NCBI GenBank assembly: GCA_017520185.1
Contig: JAFXGO010000030.1
Span: forward strand, 62,001 to 126,000
From: Elusimicrobiaceae bacterium
Lineage (GTDB): Bacteria; Elusimicrobiota; Elusimicrobia; Elusimicrobiales; Elusimicrobiaceae
Reading direction: 5' to 3'
DNA: 64,000 nucleotides
Part shown: positions 15,098-23,092 of the stretch, one piece after another
Position numbering within the stretch: position 1 is the stretch's first letter
How the letters are laid out: every line of letters begins with the position of its first letter
Notes under the pieces: model-generated
What the model saw: only the letters and a program-made list of their open reading frames with translations
What the model was told of the DNA's origin: nothing
The model's database searches: none
Position numbers and translations under genes: made by a program

Positions 15098-16216
15098 TTA
15101 AAATTTGCTTTTACTGTACAGCCCTGCCTTGCAGCAGAGCAGTCCTTTGACTTCCAACTCAAACAAAGCCCCAGCCGCTTCTTGTACCGAAAGCCCCGTC
15201 GCTTCTACTATTTGGTCGGTGGATACTTCCGCCGTTGAGATGAAATGCATAATCTTTTGTTGCTCAGGCGGCAAAGCATCATCTACCGGTTGGGCTTGTT
15301 GGCTCTGTTGCAACAACTGCAAATCAAAAAGTTGTGGGCTCGGTATATAGTCTATTATATCTTTTACTGAGGTGACAACACCTGCCCCATCTTTTATCAG
15401 ATTATTAGGACCGGCACTTTGCGGGCTATCTATCGGGCCGGGTACAGCCAAAACATCTTTGCCCATTTCCAAAGCCAGTTTAGCCGTAATCAGTGCGCCG
15501 GATTTTACTTCACCCTCTACTACGACTAGCAACTCTGACAAAGCAGCAATAATACGGTTTCTGCGCGGAAAGTGAAAAGCGTGGGGAGGTTTGTTAAAAG
15601 GCAATTCTGAAACAAGGGCTCCTCCATGTTGTAAAATAGCTCGAGCCAAGTCTCTATTTTCCGCAGGATAGCATCTTCCAATGCCTGTGCCGATGACAGC
15701 AATCGTCGGTTTTTGAAGGCGAACGGCGGCTGCGTGACATTCACTGTCTATTCCGCGTGCCAAACCGCTGACGACAACGGCTCCGGCTTGTGTTAAATCT
15801 GTAGAAAGTGTATTGGCTACCCTGCGCCCGTAAGCCGTAATTTTACGAGTACCCACCATACCGATATAGGCTTTATGAGTAGGCAAATCCCCTAAAACAT
15901 ATAAAGCAATGGGGGCTTCTTTACAATCGCGCAAACTTTGCGGATATTCTTCGTCTTCCGGTACTAAAATCCGTCCCCCGTATTTTTCGGTTTTTTCCAG
16001 TTCTTCTTCCGGATTAATAGAAAAAGCTTCTTTAAGAAAGTGAGCGGCGGTGGAAGGGTTCATTTGGGCTTGTTCTGCCAAAGAATGTGCATCTTGTTTT
16101 AAAATTTCTTGAGCAGAGCCAAAAATATCAATGAGTCTTTTTAACCAATCGGCCCGAAAATACAGAAAAGCATTTATACGAATGCGTGCTAAGCGCTCTT
16201 GCGTGGAGATGCTCAT
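15098..16216 (-). CDS. dprA: DNA-processing protein DprA (Smf)
   Basis: Cytoplasmic protein that protects incoming single-stranded DNA and loads RecA during natural transformation. A short N-terminal helical (SAM-like) domain leads to the Rossmann domain (about residues 100-290) with MVGTRKITAYGRR, SGLARGIDSECHAAA, FPRRNRIIAALSE and GALITAKLALE. A winged-helix domain follows at the C-terminus (EQQKIMHFISTAEVSTDQIVEATGLSVQEA). It overlaps comM by 4 nt, so two competence-related genes are coupled. Length 372 is typical. Confidence 0.95.
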   Translation of the reverse strand: MSISTQERLARIRINAFLYFRADWLKRLIDIFGSAQEILKQDAHSLAEQAQMNPSTAAHFLKEAFSINPEEELEKTEKYGGRILVPEDEEYPQSLRDCKEAPIALYVLGDLPTHKAYIGMVGTRKITAYGRRVANTLSTDLTQAGAVVVSGLARGIDSECHAAAVRLQKPTIAVIGTGIGRCYPAENRDLARAILQHGGALVSELPFNKPPHAFHFPRRNRIIAALSELLVVVEGEVKSGALITAKLALEMGKDVLAVPGPIDSPQSAGPNNLIKDGAGVVTSVKDIIDYIPSPQLFDLQLLQQSQQAQPVDDALPPEQQKIMHFISTAEVSTDQIVEATGLSVQEAAGALFELEVKGLLCCKAGLYSKSKF

Positions 16217-17751
16217 AAGTCAGGCACCCCCTTTCTGTCTAAGGGTCTGTATTGCAGAACTTCAATTAAATGTTGATTTTCTATATTTTCTTTTCCTTCC
16301 AAATCGGCAATGGTGCGGGCGGTTTTGAGCACTTTATCCAAACTGCGTGCGCTAAGGCCAAATTTACGCATTGCCGTTTCCAAAATACGGTCCGCTCCTG
16401 CCGGCAAGGGGCAAAATTCTTTAATTTGCTTTTGTGTCATAAAAGCATTGGCGGTGGTAGAGGTGCCTTGAAACCGCTTCTGTTGTATTTTTCGGGCCAC
16501 TATTACACGAGAGCGAATTTGAGCGGTGGTTTCTCCTTCGCTGGGTTTGTTCCAATCTCCGTATTGAACGGGGTTTAAATTAACTGTTAAATCAATACGG
16601 TCCAATAAAGGCCCAGAAATTTTGGATTGATAGCGGTTGATTTGCACCGGTGAACAAGTGCAGGGCTTGTATGGATTTCCCAAATTACCGCAAGGGCAAG
16701 GGTTCATGGCAGCTATCAGTGTAAAACGTGCCGGATAAGAGACCGTTTCTTTGGCGCGAGAAATAGTGACACTTCCATTTTCCAGAGGTTGGCGCAGCAC
16801 CTCTAATGTGGTGCGGGAAAACTCTGCAAATTCGTCTAAAAACAAAACGCCGTTATGGGCCAATGACACTTCGCCGGGTTTAGGGCTGCTTCCTCCGCCG
16901 ATAAGGGCCACGTCGGAAATGGTATGATGCGGATCTCTGAAAGGGCGTTGGGTTAATTTTTTTGTTTTCCCGATTAAATTGCAAACGGAATAAATTTTGG
17001 TAATTTCTAAAATTTCTTCTTCACAAAGAGGAGGTAAAATGCCCGGAAATCTCTTGGCCAGCATACTTTTCCCTGTTCCGGGTAAACCGATCATCAGCAC
17101 ATTATGTCCGCCGGCAGCTGCTATTTCCAAGGCTCGTTTGGCTACGGCTTGGCCTTTAACGTCACAAAAATCCAATGAAGAGCAAAAGGCTTCTTCTTGT
17201 TGCGGTATAAAAGATATTTTAACGCTTTCGTCCTCTTTTTTTTCTTCCAGCCAATCGGCCAAATCTCGCAGAGTGCGCGGTGTGATAAAAGAAACAGTGG
17301 AAGTTTGGGCTTCTAAAATATTGGCGGGGGGAACTACTACGGTTTTGCCCGTATTTTTAGCAGATATAAGCATGGGCAGCACCCCTGCGCAAGGGCGCAA
17401 AGAGCCGTCCAGCGCCAACTCCCCCAAAAAGAGCAGTTGTTTAGCCTTTTCTACCGCTTTTTCTGATAAAGATTGCGAAGCTGCCAAAATACCGACGGCA
17501 ATGGCTAAATCAAACTGAGTACCGCTTTTACGAAGTTCAGCAGGGCTTAAATTAACTGTAATTCTTTTTAAAGGAAAATCAAAGCCACTGTTGCGGATAG
17601 CCGCAATTACGCGGTCTTTGCTTTCTTTTACTTCCGCATCCGGCAATCCTACCACGGAGAAGGTGGGCATTCCCGAAGAAATGTCCACCTCTGCCGTCAC
17701 TTCAAATCCGTCTATGCCTTTTAAGGCGCATGTTTGGATGCTGGCTAACAT
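16213..17751 (-). CDS. comM: ComM / YifB-family AAA+ helicase-like protein
   Basis: Magnesium-chelatase-like AAA+ ATPase; the Vibrio homologue ComM is a hexameric helicase that aids branch migration during transformation. There is an N-terminal Lon-like (ChlI) domain (residues 1-170, VTAEVDISSGMPTFSVVGLPD). The AAA+ core has Walker A GLPGTGKSM (Lys228), Walker B GVLFLDEFAEF, and the family-specific FRDPHHTISD and PCPCGNLGNP segments. The C-terminal domain ends YRPLDRKG. Length 512 is usual. There is no clear ribosome site because only one base separates it from the upstream lipoprotein gene, so translation is probably coupled. Confidence 0.93.
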   Translation of the reverse strand: MLASIQTCALKGIDGFEVTAEVDISSGMPTFSVVGLPDAEVKESKDRVIAAIRNSGFDFPLKRITVNLSPAELRKSGTQFDLAIAVGILAASQSLSEKAVEKAKQLLFLGELALDGSLRPCAGVLPMLISAKNTGKTVVVPPANILEAQTSTVSFITPRTLRDLADWLEEKKEDESVKISFIPQQEEAFCSSLDFCDVKGQAVAKRALEIAAAGGHNVLMIGLPGTGKSMLAKRFPGILPPLCEEEILEITKIYSVCNLIGKTKKLTQRPFRDPHHTISDVALIGGGSSPKPGEVSLAHNGVLFLDEFAEFSRTTLEVLRQPLENGSVTISRAKETVSYPARFTLIAAMNPCPCGNLGNPYKPCTCSPVQINRYQSKISGPLLDRIDLTVNLNPVQYGDWNKPSEGETTAQIRSRVIVARKIQQKRFQGTSTTANAFMTQKQIKEFCPLPAGADRILETAMRKFGLSARSLDKVLKTARTIADLEGKENIENQHLIEVLQYRPLDRKGVPDL

Positions 17752-17752
17752 A

Positions 17753-18859
17753 TTAAATAAAGTTTAATACGATTTTCTGCGGGGAAATGCCCATCACCGT
17801 AAAATTTACATTATAATTTCTGATGATTTTAGCGGTTAATTCTTCTCCGGAAGAAACATTGGCTGCTATTTCAAAATGCGCATCGGAATTAGTGTATTGA
17901 GTTAAGTTATAGTCCTCAATTTCGCGCATTTCTTTGAAAATATCTTGGATTTGTTTCAAGCGTTCAATGGTTTTGACATTTTGTACCACTACATTAAATT
18001 TGGTGGCGGAATTGATGGCCGCATTAATGGGTTCTACCAACTGTTTGGCTGCCGCTTCACAAGCGGCGGAAATGGATTTTTGTGCGGCGATTTCTTCCAT
18101 TGGGTCCAAACCGCTGACTTGGTCTGCTCCTTCGGCTACCACTTGATAATTTTTGGTAGAAGCCACCTTTAAATTGGCTCTGGCGCGATAAGTCTTAAAT
18201 GCAGAAGTGATGCCCGGCAAGGCTTGCAAAGGCGCCGTTTGTACGTCTGCTATGATGATAAAGCGTGCCCCATCTTGGCGAGCTTTATCAATAAGGGGGG
18301 TGGGATTGTCTAAGTTGTTTTGGCTCAAATTATCTCCATTTACCAAAGCATAAGGTTGGGTTTTTAAGGCGCGGTAAATGGCTTGTTTACAATCTTGTTT
18401 TAAAGAGAGGTCTTCTCCTACCGCTTCCCGGGAGGTGACTAAAATGGTTGTTTTTTTGGCAAAGGCTTCGGCTTCAGATTGCTTAATAATTTCACCTACG
18501 TCTTTAACCAAGACCATCACCCGCATGCGAGTGTACCATTGGTCTGCTTTTCTATAGGCTTTTTGCACATAGCCTCTACGGATAAAACCGGCTGTTTTGG
18601 AAGTAATTTTTTCTTCCACCAATTGGGCTTGTTCGACAGTGGAAGTGGAGGAAATAAAAATGCCGGCCACTTTTTCTACAGCTGCTTTTTGAGCCGCCAA
18701 TTCTCCTTCTTTCTTCATAGCGGAAAGATTGTTTTCGTCATAAGGGACTAAAGATTCCGCCACTACATATTCCCCTTCTCCTTTTGGGCCAATGTGTAGC
18801 GCACGACATGCGCCCAAAGCAAAAGTGGCAATAAGAACAATGAATAAAAGTTTTTTCAT
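17753..18859 (-). CDS. Lipoprotein with LPP20/FlgT-like domain, function unknown
   Basis: A 368-residue probable lipoprotein (lipobox ALGAC, Cys18). After the signal, residues about 40-150 (GELAAQKAAVEKVAGIFISS, then KAYRKADQWYTRMRVMVLV) resemble the domain shared by LPP20-type lipoproteins and flagellar FlgT: an N-terminal helix rich in Ala and Arg/Lys followed by a strand with a YxV/MRV pattern. The rest holds a second alpha/beta region (ARFIIIADVQTAPLQALPG) and a third (NVVVQNVKTIERLKQIQDIF, then HFEIAANVSSGEELTAKII). The start at 18859 is chosen over 18922 because GGAGAA precedes it and the signal peptide follows. The upstream gene is a smaller lipoprotein of related type. No flagellar genes are near, so a flagellar role is not supported. 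Confidence 0.7.
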   Translation of the reverse strand: MKKLLFIVLIATFALGACRALHIGPKGEGEYVVAESLVPYDENNLSAMKKEGELAAQKAAVEKVAGIFISSTSTVEQAQLVEEKITSKTAGFIRRGYVQKAYRKADQWYTRMRVMVLVKDVGEIIKQSEAEAFAKKTTILVTSREAVGEDLSLKQDCKQAIYRALKTQPYALVNGDNLSQNNLDNPTPLIDKARQDGARFIIIADVQTAPLQALPGITSAFKTYRARANLKVASTKNYQVVAEGADQVSGLDPMEEIAAQKSISAACEAAAKQLVEPINAAINSATKFNVVVQNVKTIERLKQIQDIFKEMREIEDYNLTQYTNSDAHFEIAANVSSGEELTAKIIRNYNVNFTVMGISPQKIVLNFI

Positions 18860-18879
18860 AGTTTTCTCCAAAGGGTGAG

Positions 18880-19296
18880 TTATTGCAGTTTTTCTTTGCT
18901 TACACGCATAATGACGGTGCAAGCGCCATCTTCTAAATATTCGGTGGATACTAATTCCATATAACTAAGTACCCCCGCAGCAGAAGTGTGGATGGTAGAT
19001 CCTTCGGAAACAGCATCTACAATCTGCACATTGCTTTGCAAATTTGCTCCATAAATAACTTCGGTAGCTCTTTGATAAGCATGTGCGATGGCGGCTTCTC
19101 TGGATAAGATGCGGCGTTGAGAGTCAGATTTGTGGTTGGGGTTTGCTGCCCCAAATCCACGCACCCAAAGATAATCTTCGTCCAGTAAAGTGTCATTAAA
19201 AGAGGGTGCTATCGCACCGTCTTTGACGGCACTATTTAACCCGCCGCACGCGGCAAAACAAAAAAGACCCGTTAATAAAAGAACTAACTTTTTCAT
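18880..19296 (-). CDS. Small LPP20-like lipoprotein
   Basis: A 138-residue predicted lipoprotein (lipobox CFAAC, Cys17). The mature part has WVRGFGAANPNHKSDSQRRI and then REAAIAHAYQRATEVIYGA, the pattern of LPP20-type domains (a 'GxGxA' strand, then an Ala/Arg-rich helix), ending with a TVIMRVSKEKL strand. It overlaps the DnaA-like gene by 4 nt (ATGA), so it is probably translated by coupling to it, and lies 20 nt upstream of a larger lipoprotein of the same type. Function unknown; the conserved physical link to an AAA+ protein is the main clue. Confidence 0.72.
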   Translation of the reverse strand: MKKLVLLLTGLFCFAACGGLNSAVKDGAIAPSFNDTLLDEDYLWVRGFGAANPNHKSDSQRRILSREAAIAHAYQRATEVIYGANLQSNVQIVDAVSEGSTIHTSAAGVLSYMELVSTEYLEDGACTVIMRVSKEKLQ

Positions 19297-22200
19297 CTTA
19301 ACAACTCCGATATGATTTTGACATACGTGCTGGGGGCATTAACGTTTTCATAATTGATGACTCCACAACGAATGAGCATAATTTCTAACATATGCGTCAA
19401 AATATCATAGAAGTTTTCTCTGACAGAAGATTCGCAGATGCCCAATTCCGGCCCTAAAATAACGGCTCCTTTTAATTTTTTATTGTCACAGAGATTGGCA
19501 ATTTTAAAAGCGGAGGAAATGATGCTGTCTGTGGAATAAGAAGAACGCACAGACAGTTCCGGTCCTCCCGGAATGCCTAGTTCCTTAGCACGTTGTTGCA
19601 AGGCAAAGAGCATCCAATTCATCATATTGGAATTGTTTTGCGGATAGAAAAAGCCAATCCGGCCCCATTCCCCATTTCCTTCTACGGCTGTGTTTCCAAT
19701 TTCAGAAATGTCGCGAATGGCAACCTGGCTGGATCGGTCCTCTCCGGTGGTGGCCAATAATTGGTCAAAAATATTTTTGGAAGAACGTTGCTCCGGAGCA
19801 AGTTGTGGAAATATTAAACGTTCCAAAACGCGTACGCGACGAATGGCCCTGTTGACCGTACCTAAGGACATATTTGGCTTACCAAAGAAACGGGTGGATT
19901 CTTCGTCGGTGATATTGATGTTATTGGATAATAACATTTTTTGAATAATTTGAGAACGGGTCTTGCCGGCAGCATCTTTTAATTCGGAAATCCAGCCGGA
20001 ATCTAATTTGAAGTTTAATAATTCTTCCAACTTGGCCAAACTTTCCGGCGGATATTTAGAAGTGACGACAATTTGTTTGTGTTGCGCTCTAAAATCGTTC
20101 AGCAATTTGGAAAGGTGAGCCCGGTTTTGCTCATTGACGGCAATCAAGTGAATATCGTCAATCAAAATGGCTTTGGCATTGTTGGTAAATTCTTCAAACT
20201 TAGCAATATTGCCTTCCATGATATAACGTTGAATGCCGCGCGATAAGCGAACACCGTTGGTGATAAAAATGTTTTCCTGCCCGAATTTTTTGGACAAAGC
20301 ATAACCGATAGCATGCAGAAAATGCGTTTTACCGGTGCCGCTGGCTCCGTGCAAGACAAGCGGGTTGTACAGATGACCCGGATTATCAATGACAGAAATA
20401 GCCGTAGCATGGGCAAAGCGATTGACCGATATCGTCATATTTTCCAATGTATAAGTAGGAATCAAAGGAACCTCTAAGGGCCAATTATGCTTTTTAAGTT
20501 CAGAAAGGGGCAACTCAATAGAGTGGTCAATCGTTCTGGTCTTTTCTAAAATAGTGCTTGCGCTGGGGCGACGTCTACGCAAGACCGTATGATGCTTTTC
20601 CTCTTGAGGAGCAGGGGCCGGCGCAGCCGTTTGAACAGGAGCCGGAGGCACCGCCTCTACAGGCGCAACAACAGGGGGAACCGGTTTGGCAACAGGCGCC
20701 TCAGGCGCGGTCGGTGCTTTGGGAGCCGCAGGAGCCGGCGGTAAAGGAGCCGCAGGAGCCGGAGGTACCGGTGCTTGTACTTTTGGTTTAATGCGTAAAA
20801 TTGGTTTTTTATCCCCTGTATTTTCTGACATAGTTTTTTTCTCCATAATGGGTGCAGCCGGGGGCGGGATAACCCTATTTTCCCGCTCCGTTTGACCGGA
20901 TAAATCCGGTTGAGGCAAAGGTTCCTGCACAGAGACATCTTGTTTGTCTTCTTGAGGAACCGTAGAATGTCCATCTATATCTGATGCAGGAAAAACTCTT
21001 TGCACAGGGGGTTCCTGTGGGGTTTGGTCCTGCAAAATCGGTTGTTCTTGTGGCAATTCGTTTGACGTTGCCTGACTGTCTTCTTCTTTTTGGGCCGCAG
21101 AAGCCAATAATTGCTCAAAAGGATCCAGCACTTCTTCCTTTTTATCTTTTTGATGTTCAAAGCGACTAAAAGGTATTGGTACGGAAAGAGTCGGCTTTGG
21201 CGGGAGAGGAATATGTCTTTGCTCCTCAGGTTTCTCAGCCTCTGAAACTATTTCCACCGCTTTATCCGGTTGTGTGCTATCTAAATGGGCATGCTCTACA
21301 AACCCCAAATCCTTTTGCGTAATACGCTCTGTAATTTGTTTTACGTCTTCTAAATCAACGAAACAAGTTTGATCTTTTATTTTTTGGTCAAAGATATTGA
21401 AGGAATTATTTTCCGTATCCATTTCCGCTGCGCTCGCGTCTTGTGCGGGGAAAGTTTGTTTTTGCAAGGATAATTCTTCTTGTTTCTTTTGTTCTTCTTG
21501 TTTAACTTGAGTGGACTGTTGGTTATCCTCAGAAGACAATTTGCTCAAATCTAAGAACATATCGTATTTGGTCTCTGCCGAAAAAATATCTTCCAACGGT
21601 TGTTCTAAAACAGAACTTTCCATGTCTGCATTTAGCATATCATCGTTGGTAATAGGCATTTCTTGAGCCTCCAAATCCTCTTGTATTTCCGGTTGCGTTT
21701 CCGGTTCTGAGATAGGAGATGAAACAACGGAAGGAAGTTTTTCTGTCGGTAGTTTTTCTGCATTACCATCGTCTAAAGAAAAAGAATCTGTTTCCTGCGG
21801 TTTTTCTTCGGTTTTAGGTTGGTCAAGGTCAATTTCTTTGACTACACTTACAGGATCTGCCATCGGTTCAGAAGATGGTGTAATTTCGGGTAATACAATC
21901 GGTTCTTCTTTCGTTTTTTCTTCAGAAAAATCTCTTTCCGTTATTTCCGGAGCCGACTGAGCCAACTCTACCGTAGGTATATCAGTGCTTCGGATGGTAT
22001 CTAAATTAATCTGCCTGTGTTGAAAACCGTCCAACTCTTCTACATCTAAATTCACCGAAGCAATTTCTTCAGAAGTAGACGGTTGGAAAAAACTGGCAGA
22101 TGGATCTAACGTCAAAAAAGTAGGGAAGGCCTTGTCTTCTTTAGAAACATTTTCATTAAACAAAGTATTTCCAAAAGAACCGCCCGGCACAAATTCATTT

Positions 22201-22451
22201 ACTTTTTTGGCTTGTTCGATGCCTTCTCGTACGGCAGTACGTATTTTTTCTAGGGTATCTTCATCTAAATCATTAGGCAAAGAAAAACTATATACATAAG
22301 GGGCTAAAGCCGGTGTCGGCGCTTGTGCATAGCCTTGTAATTTTTTGGCAATCAAGCGCGCATCATGCTCCGTCCCATCAATAAGCAAAGTGTATAAGAT
22401 GGAATTATCTTTAGCACTGATATTAGAGATGATATCCCACTGAGTAATCAT
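19293..22451 (-). CDS. Giant DnaA-like AAA+ ATPase with disordered N-terminal half
   Basis: A 1052-residue protein that is not the usual initiator DnaA. Residues 1-110 form a small folded-looking domain. About 110-640 is low complexity, rich in Glu, Gln, Ser and Pro, ending in a Pro/Ala stretch ([20 protein letters not shown]). The C-terminal half holds a DnaA/Hda-type AAA+ module: [20 protein letters not shown] with Walker A Lys708, [16 protein letters not shown], Walker [11 protein letters not shown] with Asp765-766, and a sensor-2-like [13 protein letters not shown] segment. A final domain of about 120 residues ([20 protein letters not shown], then [10 protein letters not shown]) replaces the DnaA helix-turn-helix; I see no REHTTVxHA-type signature. 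It overlaps deoC and the small lipoprotein by 4 nt each. Function not known. Confidence 0.82.
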
Positions 22452-23092
22452 TTTTCCTCTACGATTTTAACTCCGGCACTGGCTCCGATGCGGGTGGCAC
22501 CGGCGGCTACCATTTTGTCAAAATCTTCCCGCGTGCGCACACCACCGGAGGCTTTGACCTGCATATCGGCGGAGATATTTTCTTTCATGAGTTTTACGTC
22601 TTCTGCCGTAGCACCGCCACCGGTAAAACCGGTAGAGGTTTTTACAAAATCAACCTTGGCCTGCGTACATAACTGGCAAAGTTTTACCTTTTCTTCTTCC
22701 GTTAAAACGGAAGTTTCAATAATGACTTTTAAAGTGAAATTTTCACCGGCGTGGCGCAAGGCCTCTATATCGGCCAAAACGGTTTGCCAATCTTGGCTTT
22801 TAACGGCGCCGAGATTGACTACCATGTCTAATTCATCGGCGCCATTTTTCAAAGCGTCCTTAGCTTCTAATACTTTGACTTCGGTTGTATTGGCCCCTAG
22901 CGGAAAACCGATTACCGTACATACTTTTACATCGCTTCCTTTGAGTTGTTCTTTGCAGAAAGAAACCCAATACGGATTGACACAAACACTGAAAAAGCCA
23001 TATTGGCGTGCTTCTTCGCACAGGGCTTTGATTTCGGATTGTGAAGCTTGCGGTTTGAGTAAGGTGTGGTCAATGTATTTGGCTAAGTTCAT
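22448..23092 (-). CDS. deoC: Deoxyribose-phosphate aldolase
   Basis: Cleaves 2-deoxyribose-5-phosphate to glyceraldehyde-3-phosphate and acetaldehyde in the cytoplasm, feeding deoxynucleosides into glycolysis. Signature regions are IDHTLLKP at the N-terminus, [26 protein letters not shown] (Asp of the proton relay), the Schiff-base lysine Lys151 in FVKTSTGF, and Lys180 in VKASGGVRT. Length 214 is typical. It follows tpiA by 9 nt, which is metabolically sensible because TPI handles the glyceraldehyde-3-phosphate product, and overlaps the next gene by 4 nt. Confidence 0.96.

What the first reader, a model, noticed from the sequence alone, without database searches (positions are those of the whole stretch)
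19293..22451. Giant DnaA-like AAA+ protein without the DnaA DNA-binding domain
A 1052-residue protein carries a DnaA/Hda-type AAA+ module (Walker A Lys708, Walker B Asp765-766) in its C-terminal half. About 530 residues of Glu/Gln/Pro-rich low complexity lie before it, and an unrecognised domain of about 120 residues follows in place of DnaA domain IV. Such a shape fits a scaffold or regulatory ATPase rather than an initiator: Hda-like control, polar localisation or clustering are all open. It sits between deoC and two lipoproteins, not near dnaN or an origin.
Basis: partly seen in the sequence, partly recalled or inferred. Interest (0 to 1): 0.78.

Follow-up and report, generated by a model that had tools for sequence, protein, structure and literature searches.

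The report
DnaA-derived ATPase repurposed in Elusimicrobiota
Bacteria across one poorly known phylum carry a second, ancient relative of the DNA-replication starter DnaA that kept its ATP pocket but lost the replication parts and gained new end domains, so it probably works as a signalling switch rather than starting replication.

Summary
The 1052-aa gene at 19293-22451(-) has a DnaA-type AAA+ module, no DnaA domain IV, and the genome has a normal dnaA elsewhere. It belongs to an old Elusimicrobiota family: 41 of 41 close genomes, and its C-terminal domain in 204 of 294 phylum genomes (67 of 90 genera). The layout is a conserved ~88-aa N-terminal domain, a tether of very variable length, the AAA+ core and a ~126-aa C-terminal domain. 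Walker A/B residues are invariant, but most residues that E. coli DnaA uses for oligomerisation and ATP hydrolysis are gone. AlphaFold plus a PDB comparison gives the C-terminal domain the fold of Argonaute MID domains (Z 10.2-12.8); the phosphate-pocket residues do not look kept. Outside the window's own family the gene is usually followed by a GAF histidine kinase, often preceded by a protein ending in a homologous domain, and in 10 of 22 distant loci preceded by a PilT-sized ATPase; all three are missing beside it in the window's family. Best reading: a DnaA-derived, ATP-binding regulatory scaffold of a membrane-signalling module, possibly tied to type IV pili. Hda-like control is not supported. 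Family and anatomy are shown; function is inferred.

The parts
22188..22451 (-). N-terminal domain, residues 1-88, small beta-beta-alpha-beta-alpha domain; also found in front of a GGDEF domain in a distant relative (L132)
   Evidence: Alignment of 21 relatives; AF2 mean pLDDT 79.6 for residues 1-110, block means 87-93 over residues 1-80; no strong PDB match, best Z 7.3; GGDEF fusion
20478..22187 (-). Tether, residues 89-658, P/E/Q-rich, not conserved in length
   Evidence: 379-1139 aa, median 558, in 70 Elusimicrobiaceae proteins, one of them (L190) cut at its 5' end; shorter in family f2, whose whole proteins have 536-762 aa
19674..20477 (-). DnaA domain III-type AAA+ core with lid, residues 659-926; Walker A K708, Walker B D765-D766
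   Evidence: Pfam/NCBIfam; profile match to a DnaA chain of known structure, 8btg, E 9.9e-47; residue census
19296..19673 (-). C-terminal alpha/beta domain, residues 927-1052, Argonaute-MID-like fold
   Evidence: AF2 of residues 819-1052, pLDDT 93.2, pTM 0.89; VIA-align 2, 50 of 50 listed entries Argonaute/PIWI, Z 10.2-12.8; no PDB sequence match at E <= 1 and no convincing Pfam match
22448..23092 (-). deoC, overlaps the start of the gene by 4 bases
   Evidence: PF01791 82.6 bits; coordinates
18880..19296 (-). lipoprotein-like ORF 1 (FlgT_N-like, 17.5 bits, below Pfam's 28.8), overlaps the gene's stop by 4 bases
   Evidence: lipobox read by eye
17753..18922 (-). lipoprotein-like ORF 2; next or next-but-one gene downstream in 10 of 10 f1 loci
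   Evidence: lipobox read by eye
16213..17751 (-). comM/yifB-like gene, downstream in 10 of 10 f1 loci
   Evidence: coordinates, conservation; the name is recalled, not from a family search

Best explanation
It is an old Elusimicrobiota paralogue of the DnaA AAA+ domain that has become an ATP-binding regulatory scaffold. Shown by sequence: conserved Walker A/B residues, loss of the DnaA-DnaA interface, Arg-finger and sensor-2 arginines, loss of domain IV, a conserved N-terminal domain on a long tether, and a MID-fold C-terminal domain (predicted) whose homologue ends a second protein encoded next door in other families. Inferred: the ATP/ADP state changes the AAA+ core, which gathers its tethered N-terminal domain, the partner protein and a membrane-anchored GAF histidine kinase into a signalling complex, and the output acts at the envelope, most plausibly on type IV pilus activity. 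In the window's own family the adjacent kinase and partner genes are gone and a longer tether remains.
For: Normal dnaA elsewhere. 22 relatives form one side of a branch against 14 DnaA at 100/100. K178/D235/D236 (E. coli numbering) kept in 22 of 22; R227 0, K243 0, R281 2, R285 1, R334 1 of 22, against 13, 14, 14, 14, 14 of 14 true DnaA; roles of these residues from passages of PMC5742627. MID-like fold. Partner's C-terminal domain homologous: hhalign 94.8%, E 5e-8 with the 13 partner rows found by profile, 98.3%, E 1.7e-14 with all 20; reversed-sequence controls 0.4 and 1.0%. GAF-HisKA-HATPase kinase (six tested by Pfam) downstream in 7 of 8 f2 loci and 14 of 22 more distant loci; PilT-sized T2SSE ATPase upstream in 10 of those 22 (three tested by Pfam; counts). 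N-terminal domain shared with a diguanylate cyclase beside such an ATPase.
Against: No experiment. Kinase, partner and PilT are all missing beside the gene in 10 of 10 f1 loci, the window's family, and the partner domain is not found in the own genome (without a positive control). PilT is not adjacent in any of the 8 f2 loci either, and the kinase is lacking in 8 of the 22 distant loci, some of them cut by contig ends. No receiver domain was found, so no phosphotransfer route is evident. In f1 the finger position is often still basic (K 46, R 27, H 4 of 78). The gene also sits beside comM-dprA-topA in the class, and neighbourhood alone cannot choose a process. Nucleotide binding itself is predicted.
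Confidence: 0.5

Rival explanations
1. A polar or envelope landmark: a long tethered hub, like FimV or HubP in role only (recalled), that clusters envelope machines, with the AAA+ core as a binding module that does not cycle.
For: Tether of 379-1139 aa, sensor-2 arginine lost in 80 of 80 f1 loci, lipoprotein-like genes in the same run.
Against: Walker A and B residues intact in 78 of 78 readable f1 rows, which suggests that nucleotide matters; no localisation data.
Confidence: 0.2
2. A competence or DNA-processing factor: the protein handles incoming single strands together with ComM and DprA encoded just downstream, with the MID-like domain holding a 5' end.
For: comM and dprA follow in 10 of 10 f1 loci, comM in 7 of 8 f2 loci and 6 of 22 distant loci; own genome has a ComEC and four T2SSE ATPases; MID fold; recJ follows in one distant locus, L130.
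Against: comM is labelled in 0 of the 9 fetched loci from other classes (L121, L123, L125, L126, L128-L132). The ssDNA positions V211 and R245 are not kept (R245 is itself basic in only 9 of these 14 true DnaA). The Y/R-K-Q-K pocket given for MID domains in PMC6299218 is not recognisable by topology-based reading.
Confidence: 0.17
3. A replication regulator in the style of Hda: stimulates hydrolysis by DnaA or sequesters it through AAA+ contacts.
For: AAA+ core is clearly of the DnaA type; a basic residue remains at the finger position in 77 of 78 f1 rows.
Against: 0 of 70 proteins with a clamp-like QL[SDP]L[FPL] motif; the finger position is Q or E in the 10 f2 rows (alignment); far below the Hda model's cut-off; the tether and two added domains are not explained.
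Confidence: 0.08

Closest known systems
DnaA, chromosomal replication initiator (TIGR00362; PF00308 + PF08299)
   Same: AAA+ domain III and lid, Walker A/B
   Different: No domain IV, different N-terminal domain, long tether, oligomerisation and sensor-2 residues lost; separate clade from the genome's true DnaA
Hda (TIGR03420), regulatory inactivator of DnaA
   Same: DnaA-type AAA+ without domain IV
   Different: No clamp-binding-like motif found, no conserved Arg finger, extra domains; 49 bits against a cut-off of 194.8
Argonaute/PIWI MID domain
   Same: Predicted fold of the last ~126 residues (Z 10.2-12.8, rmsd 2.4-3.6 over 114-125 residues)
   Different: No PIWI domain, no sequence match found, 5'-phosphate pocket residues not recognisable; Piwi rings in only 3 of 294 phylum genomes, 2 of them over the cut-off
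GAF-domain histidine kinases
   Same: Recurrent neighbour outside f1, not part of the protein
   Different: The DnaA-like protein has no receiver match in Pfam at E <= 1

Membership tests
DnaA initiator | AAA+ domain III with Walker A/B | tested here: met
   K178, D235, D236 in 22 of 22
DnaA initiator | Domain IV helix-turn-helix (PF08299) | tested here: not met
   No match in the protein; genome's only match is the other dnaA; the region is predicted to fold differently
DnaA initiator | Box VII R281, Arg finger R285, sensor 2 R334 | tested here: not met
   R kept in 2, 1 and 1 of 22; 14 of 14 in true DnaA
DnaA initiator | Scores above the TIGR00362 cut-off | tested here: not met
   138 against 343.9 bits
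Hda | Clamp-binding motif | tested here: not met
   0 of 70 proteins with QL[SDP]L[FPL]; no Q[LM].L[FPL] in the window protein (patterns recalled)
Hda | Stimulates DnaA-ATP hydrolysis with clamp-DNA | not testable with these tools
   needs biochemistry
Argonaute MID domain | MID fold | tested here: met
   VIA-align 2: 50 of 50 listed entries Ago/PIWI, Z 10.2-12.8. Foldseek ranks lumazine synthases first (E 6.6e-4, TMt 0.54), Piwi at rank 17, so a commoner Rossmann-like arrangement is not excluded
Argonaute MID domain | 5'-phosphate pocket Y/R-K-Q-K | tested here: inconclusive
   Read from strand order only, not from superposed coordinates; alignments; motif from PMC6299218
Argonaute MID domain | Sequence homology to MID | tested here: inconclusive
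   No PDB sequence match at E <= 1 and no Argonaute family in Pfam; hhalign to two near-identical pAgos 0.6%, a weak single-sequence test

The most novel reading that the evidence does not exclude
Elusimicrobiota run a two-protein, nucleotide-gated signalling hub in which a DnaA-derived AAA+ switch and its partner meet through paired MID-fold domains that bind a small phosphorylated ligand or nucleic-acid end, linking a GAF histidine kinase to type IV pilus retraction. This would be a MID-fold module working outside Argonaute and a DnaA domain working outside replication.
Probability: 0.12. Interest if true: 0.85.

Novelty: new variant of a known kind. Interest (0 to 1): 0.6.

Why it matters
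DnaA is treated as the defining protein of bacterial replication initiation. Here one phylum has kept a second copy of its ATPase core for what looks like an unrelated job, with the nucleotide pocket under strong constraint and the replication surfaces erased. That makes it a natural test of what the DnaA ATP switch can do alone, and gives a poorly known phylum a widespread candidate signalling system.

Tried and rejected
Initiator reading: rejected because a complete dnaA exists elsewhere and domain IV is absent.

Receiver domain at the C-terminus: considered because of the kinase neighbour; no Pfam receiver match and no invariant acidic residue at the end of strand 3. Rejected as a phosphoacceptor.

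C-terminal domain against the partner's domain: the first comparison (22 against 8 rows) gave hhalign 2.7%. Wider alignments gave 98.3% (40 against 20 rows), but the 20 partner rows were listed by hand and six of them were picked by eye. Recheck: 8 f2 rows 56.5%, 13 rows found by profile 94.8%, six eye-picked rows 97.6%; controls 0.4, 0.5 and 1.0%.

N-terminal domain: no convincing PDB relative (best Z 7.3). Families absent from those lists are not excluded.

PADLOC: two matches, mad8 (E 2.4e-7, 28.6 bits, within the AAA+ stretch) and TRIP13 (12.3 bits); defence not pursued. Viral contigs: 11 pattern matches, none a relative.

pAgo comparison: Piwi rings in 3 of 294 phylum genomes, 2 over the cut-off; hhalign to those two, nearly identical, 0.6%.

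E. coli Hda could not be placed: the core profile did not find it in L221, so the tree holds 14 DnaA (13 of them Elusimicrobiota) and 22 relatives. Age of the split against other phyla's DnaA is therefore not settled.

Distribution: the first profile, from the own class, rang in 185 of 294 genomes and 10 outside the class. A profile with distant rows rang in 204 of 294 and 27 outside the class.

Literature: searches listed no paper whose title or abstract start describes this family (one search listed 10 of 83). They cover open-licence PubMed Central only. Listings were seen, plus passages of PMC11257099, PMC6299218 and PMC5742627 (found).

Corrections: the gene picker dropped the DnaA-like ORF in L118, L122 and L127; one search recovers all three. 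Gene labels come from similarity to window genes or to f2/L128/L132 genes; names other than deoC, the kinases, T2SSE and GGDEF were given by eye. A 360-aa gene in L131 is a glycosyltransferase by eye, not PilT.

Full report
What is there. The gene at 19293-22451(-) encodes 1052 aa. Pfam Bac_DnaA matches residues 665-820 (103 bits) and TIGR00362 matches 640-917 at 138 bits, well under its cut-off of 343.9; Hda scores 49 against 194.8. The genome has an ordinary dnaA on another contig with both the ATPase domain and domain IV. The gene shares 4-base overlaps with deoC upstream and with a small lipoprotein-like ORF downstream (coordinates).

Where it occurs. In this report f1 is the window's family and f2 the other family of its order. 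The core plus C-terminus is found in 41 of 41 close genomes, own included. For the C-terminal domain, a profile with distant rows rings in 204 of 294 phylum genomes, 148 of 189 good-quality ones and 67 of 90 genera; a narrower profile rang in 185 of 294. Outside the own class 27 genomes ring. The misses shown are 12 of the own class and 8 of one family, f10; 70 more are not listed. No genome of the own order is among the listed misses. I fetched 20 of the 26 distant genomes, and 20 of 20 carry the same AAA+ core.

Anatomy. Three conserved parts are joined by a variable tether. The N-terminal domain is shared across f1, f2 and f7, and AlphaFold gives it a small beta-beta-alpha-beta-alpha shape (mean pLDDT 79.6, block means 87-93 over residues 1-80) with no strong PDB relative. 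The tether ranges from 379 to 1139 residues in 70 f1 proteins, median 558, while whole f2 proteins have 536-762 aa. The AAA+ core aligns with DnaA of known structure, best E 9.9e-47. The last ~126 residues replace domain IV.

What the AAA+ core kept and lost. In an alignment of 22 relatives with 14 true DnaA, K178, D235 and D236 (E. coli numbering) are kept in 22 of 22. The residue of E. coli is kept at 227 in 0, 243 in 0, 281 in 2, 285 in 1 and 334 in 1 of 22 relatives, against 13, 14, 14, 14 and 14 of 14 true DnaA. V211 is V or I in 14 of 14 DnaA and I in 1 of 22 relatives; R245 is basic in 9 of 14 DnaA and in 3 of 22 relatives, not counting H, so this last position discriminates less. Among 80 f1 loci, Walker residues are intact in 78 of 78 readable rows and the sensor-2 position is G or S in 80 of 80. 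The finger position there is K 46, R 27, H 4, N 1 of 78, so a basic residue often remains in f1, while the 10 f2 rows have Q or E (alignment). PMC5742627 (passages) assigns R285, R281, R227 and K243 to DnaA-DnaA contacts, V211 and R245 to ssDNA, and R334 to hydrolysis. The relatives form one side of a branch against DnaA with 100/100 support; the f1 and f2 rows fall on separate branches (87/88 and 86/96, below the tool's star).

The C-terminal domain. AlphaFold with 78 sequences, all from the f1 loci and the window, gives pLDDT 93.2 and pTM 0.89 for residues 819-1052. VIA-align 2 places 50 of 50 listed entries in the Argonaute/PIWI family, Z 10.2-12.8, rmsd 2.4-3.6 over 114-125 residues. Foldseek's own first hits are lumazine synthases at E 6.6e-4 and TMt 0.54, with Piwi at rank 17, so a general Rossmann-like arrangement cannot be excluded. 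There is no PDB sequence match at E <= 1, no convincing Pfam match, and a weak single-sequence test against a pAgo was negative. The Y/R-K-Q-K pocket described in PMC6299218 (passages) is not recognisable, but I judged this from strand order only.

Neighbours. From 40 loci (corrected). In 10 f1 loci lipoprotein-like genes, comM and dprA follow in 10 of 10, and none has the kinase, the partner or PilT beside it. In 8 f2 loci a partner protein precedes the gene in 8, a histidine kinase follows in 7 and comM lies downstream in 7. In 22 more distant loci, some cut by contig ends, the kinase follows in 14, a PilT-sized T2SSE ATPase precedes in 10 and comM is labelled in 6, all six of the own class. 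Pfam identifies six tested kinases as GAF-HisKA-HATPase and three tested ATPases as T2SSE. The partner has a P/E-rich tether and a C-terminal domain homologous to that of the DnaA-like protein: hhalign 94.8%, E 5e-8, with the 13 rows found by profile, and 98.3%, E 1.7e-14, with all 20 hand-listed rows; controls 0.4-1.0%. With the 8 f2 rows alone it is 56.5% and an early narrow comparison gave 2.7%. In L132 the N-terminal domain fronts a GGDEF protein beside the ATPase.

Interpretation. The evidence shows a DnaA-derived paralogue that keeps its nucleotide-pocket residues and has lost initiator features. Its most frequent partner outside f1 is a sensor kinase with an apparent N-terminal membrane segment (by eye), and two of its parts are shared with other proteins of the locus. 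I therefore favour a nucleotide-controlled scaffold in a signalling module. A link to type IV pili rests on adjacency in 10 of 22 distant loci and on the GGDEF fusion; the alternative link to competence rests on comM and dprA adjacency within the class. PMC11257099 (two passages) states that Elusimicrobiota genomes lack flagella and that isolates are non-motile, so a pilus output need not mean motility. The own genome has 4 T2SSE, 5 HisKA and 1 ComEC matches.

Limits. Nothing here is experimental, the window's own family lacks the kinase and partner next door, the family is missing or undetected in 90 of 294 phylum genomes, and many genomes are metagenome assemblies.

Noticed in passing
L077 8477-8710; L122 12532-12825; also L116, L119, L121, L124, L127, L069: A family of small proteins (77-107 aa in most, 155 in L069) between deoC and the DnaA-like gene or PilT, with a conserved C-terminal half; no Pfam match for the one tested.
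   Followed up: partly
L132 4051-5484: GGDEF diguanylate cyclase whose N-terminus is the same domain as residues 1-88 of the window protein.
   Followed up: partly
window 17753-18922: The listed TTG start makes the ORF overlap its neighbour by 43 bases; an internal ATG about 21 residues later gives a cleaner lipoprotein signal (by eye).
   Followed up: no
L234, L235: A short Argonaute-like protein (471 aa frame) in two species of the window's genus.
   Followed up: no
L231: The true DnaA of genome G040 sits in an unusually long 586-aa frame.
   Followed up: no
L189, L194, L196: The family's frame is short here (202, 511 and 513 aa) with no N-terminal domain match; split gene or assembly error not resolved.
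   Followed up: no
window 18880-19296; L073 5758-6813; L076 12765-13991: Lipoprotein-like neighbours match FlgT_N weakly, below Pfam's cut-off, in a phylum reported to lack flagella.
   Followed up: no
phylum family f10: The 8 misses listed outside the own class are all of family f10, at 99-100% completeness; the domain may have been lost there.
   Followed up: no
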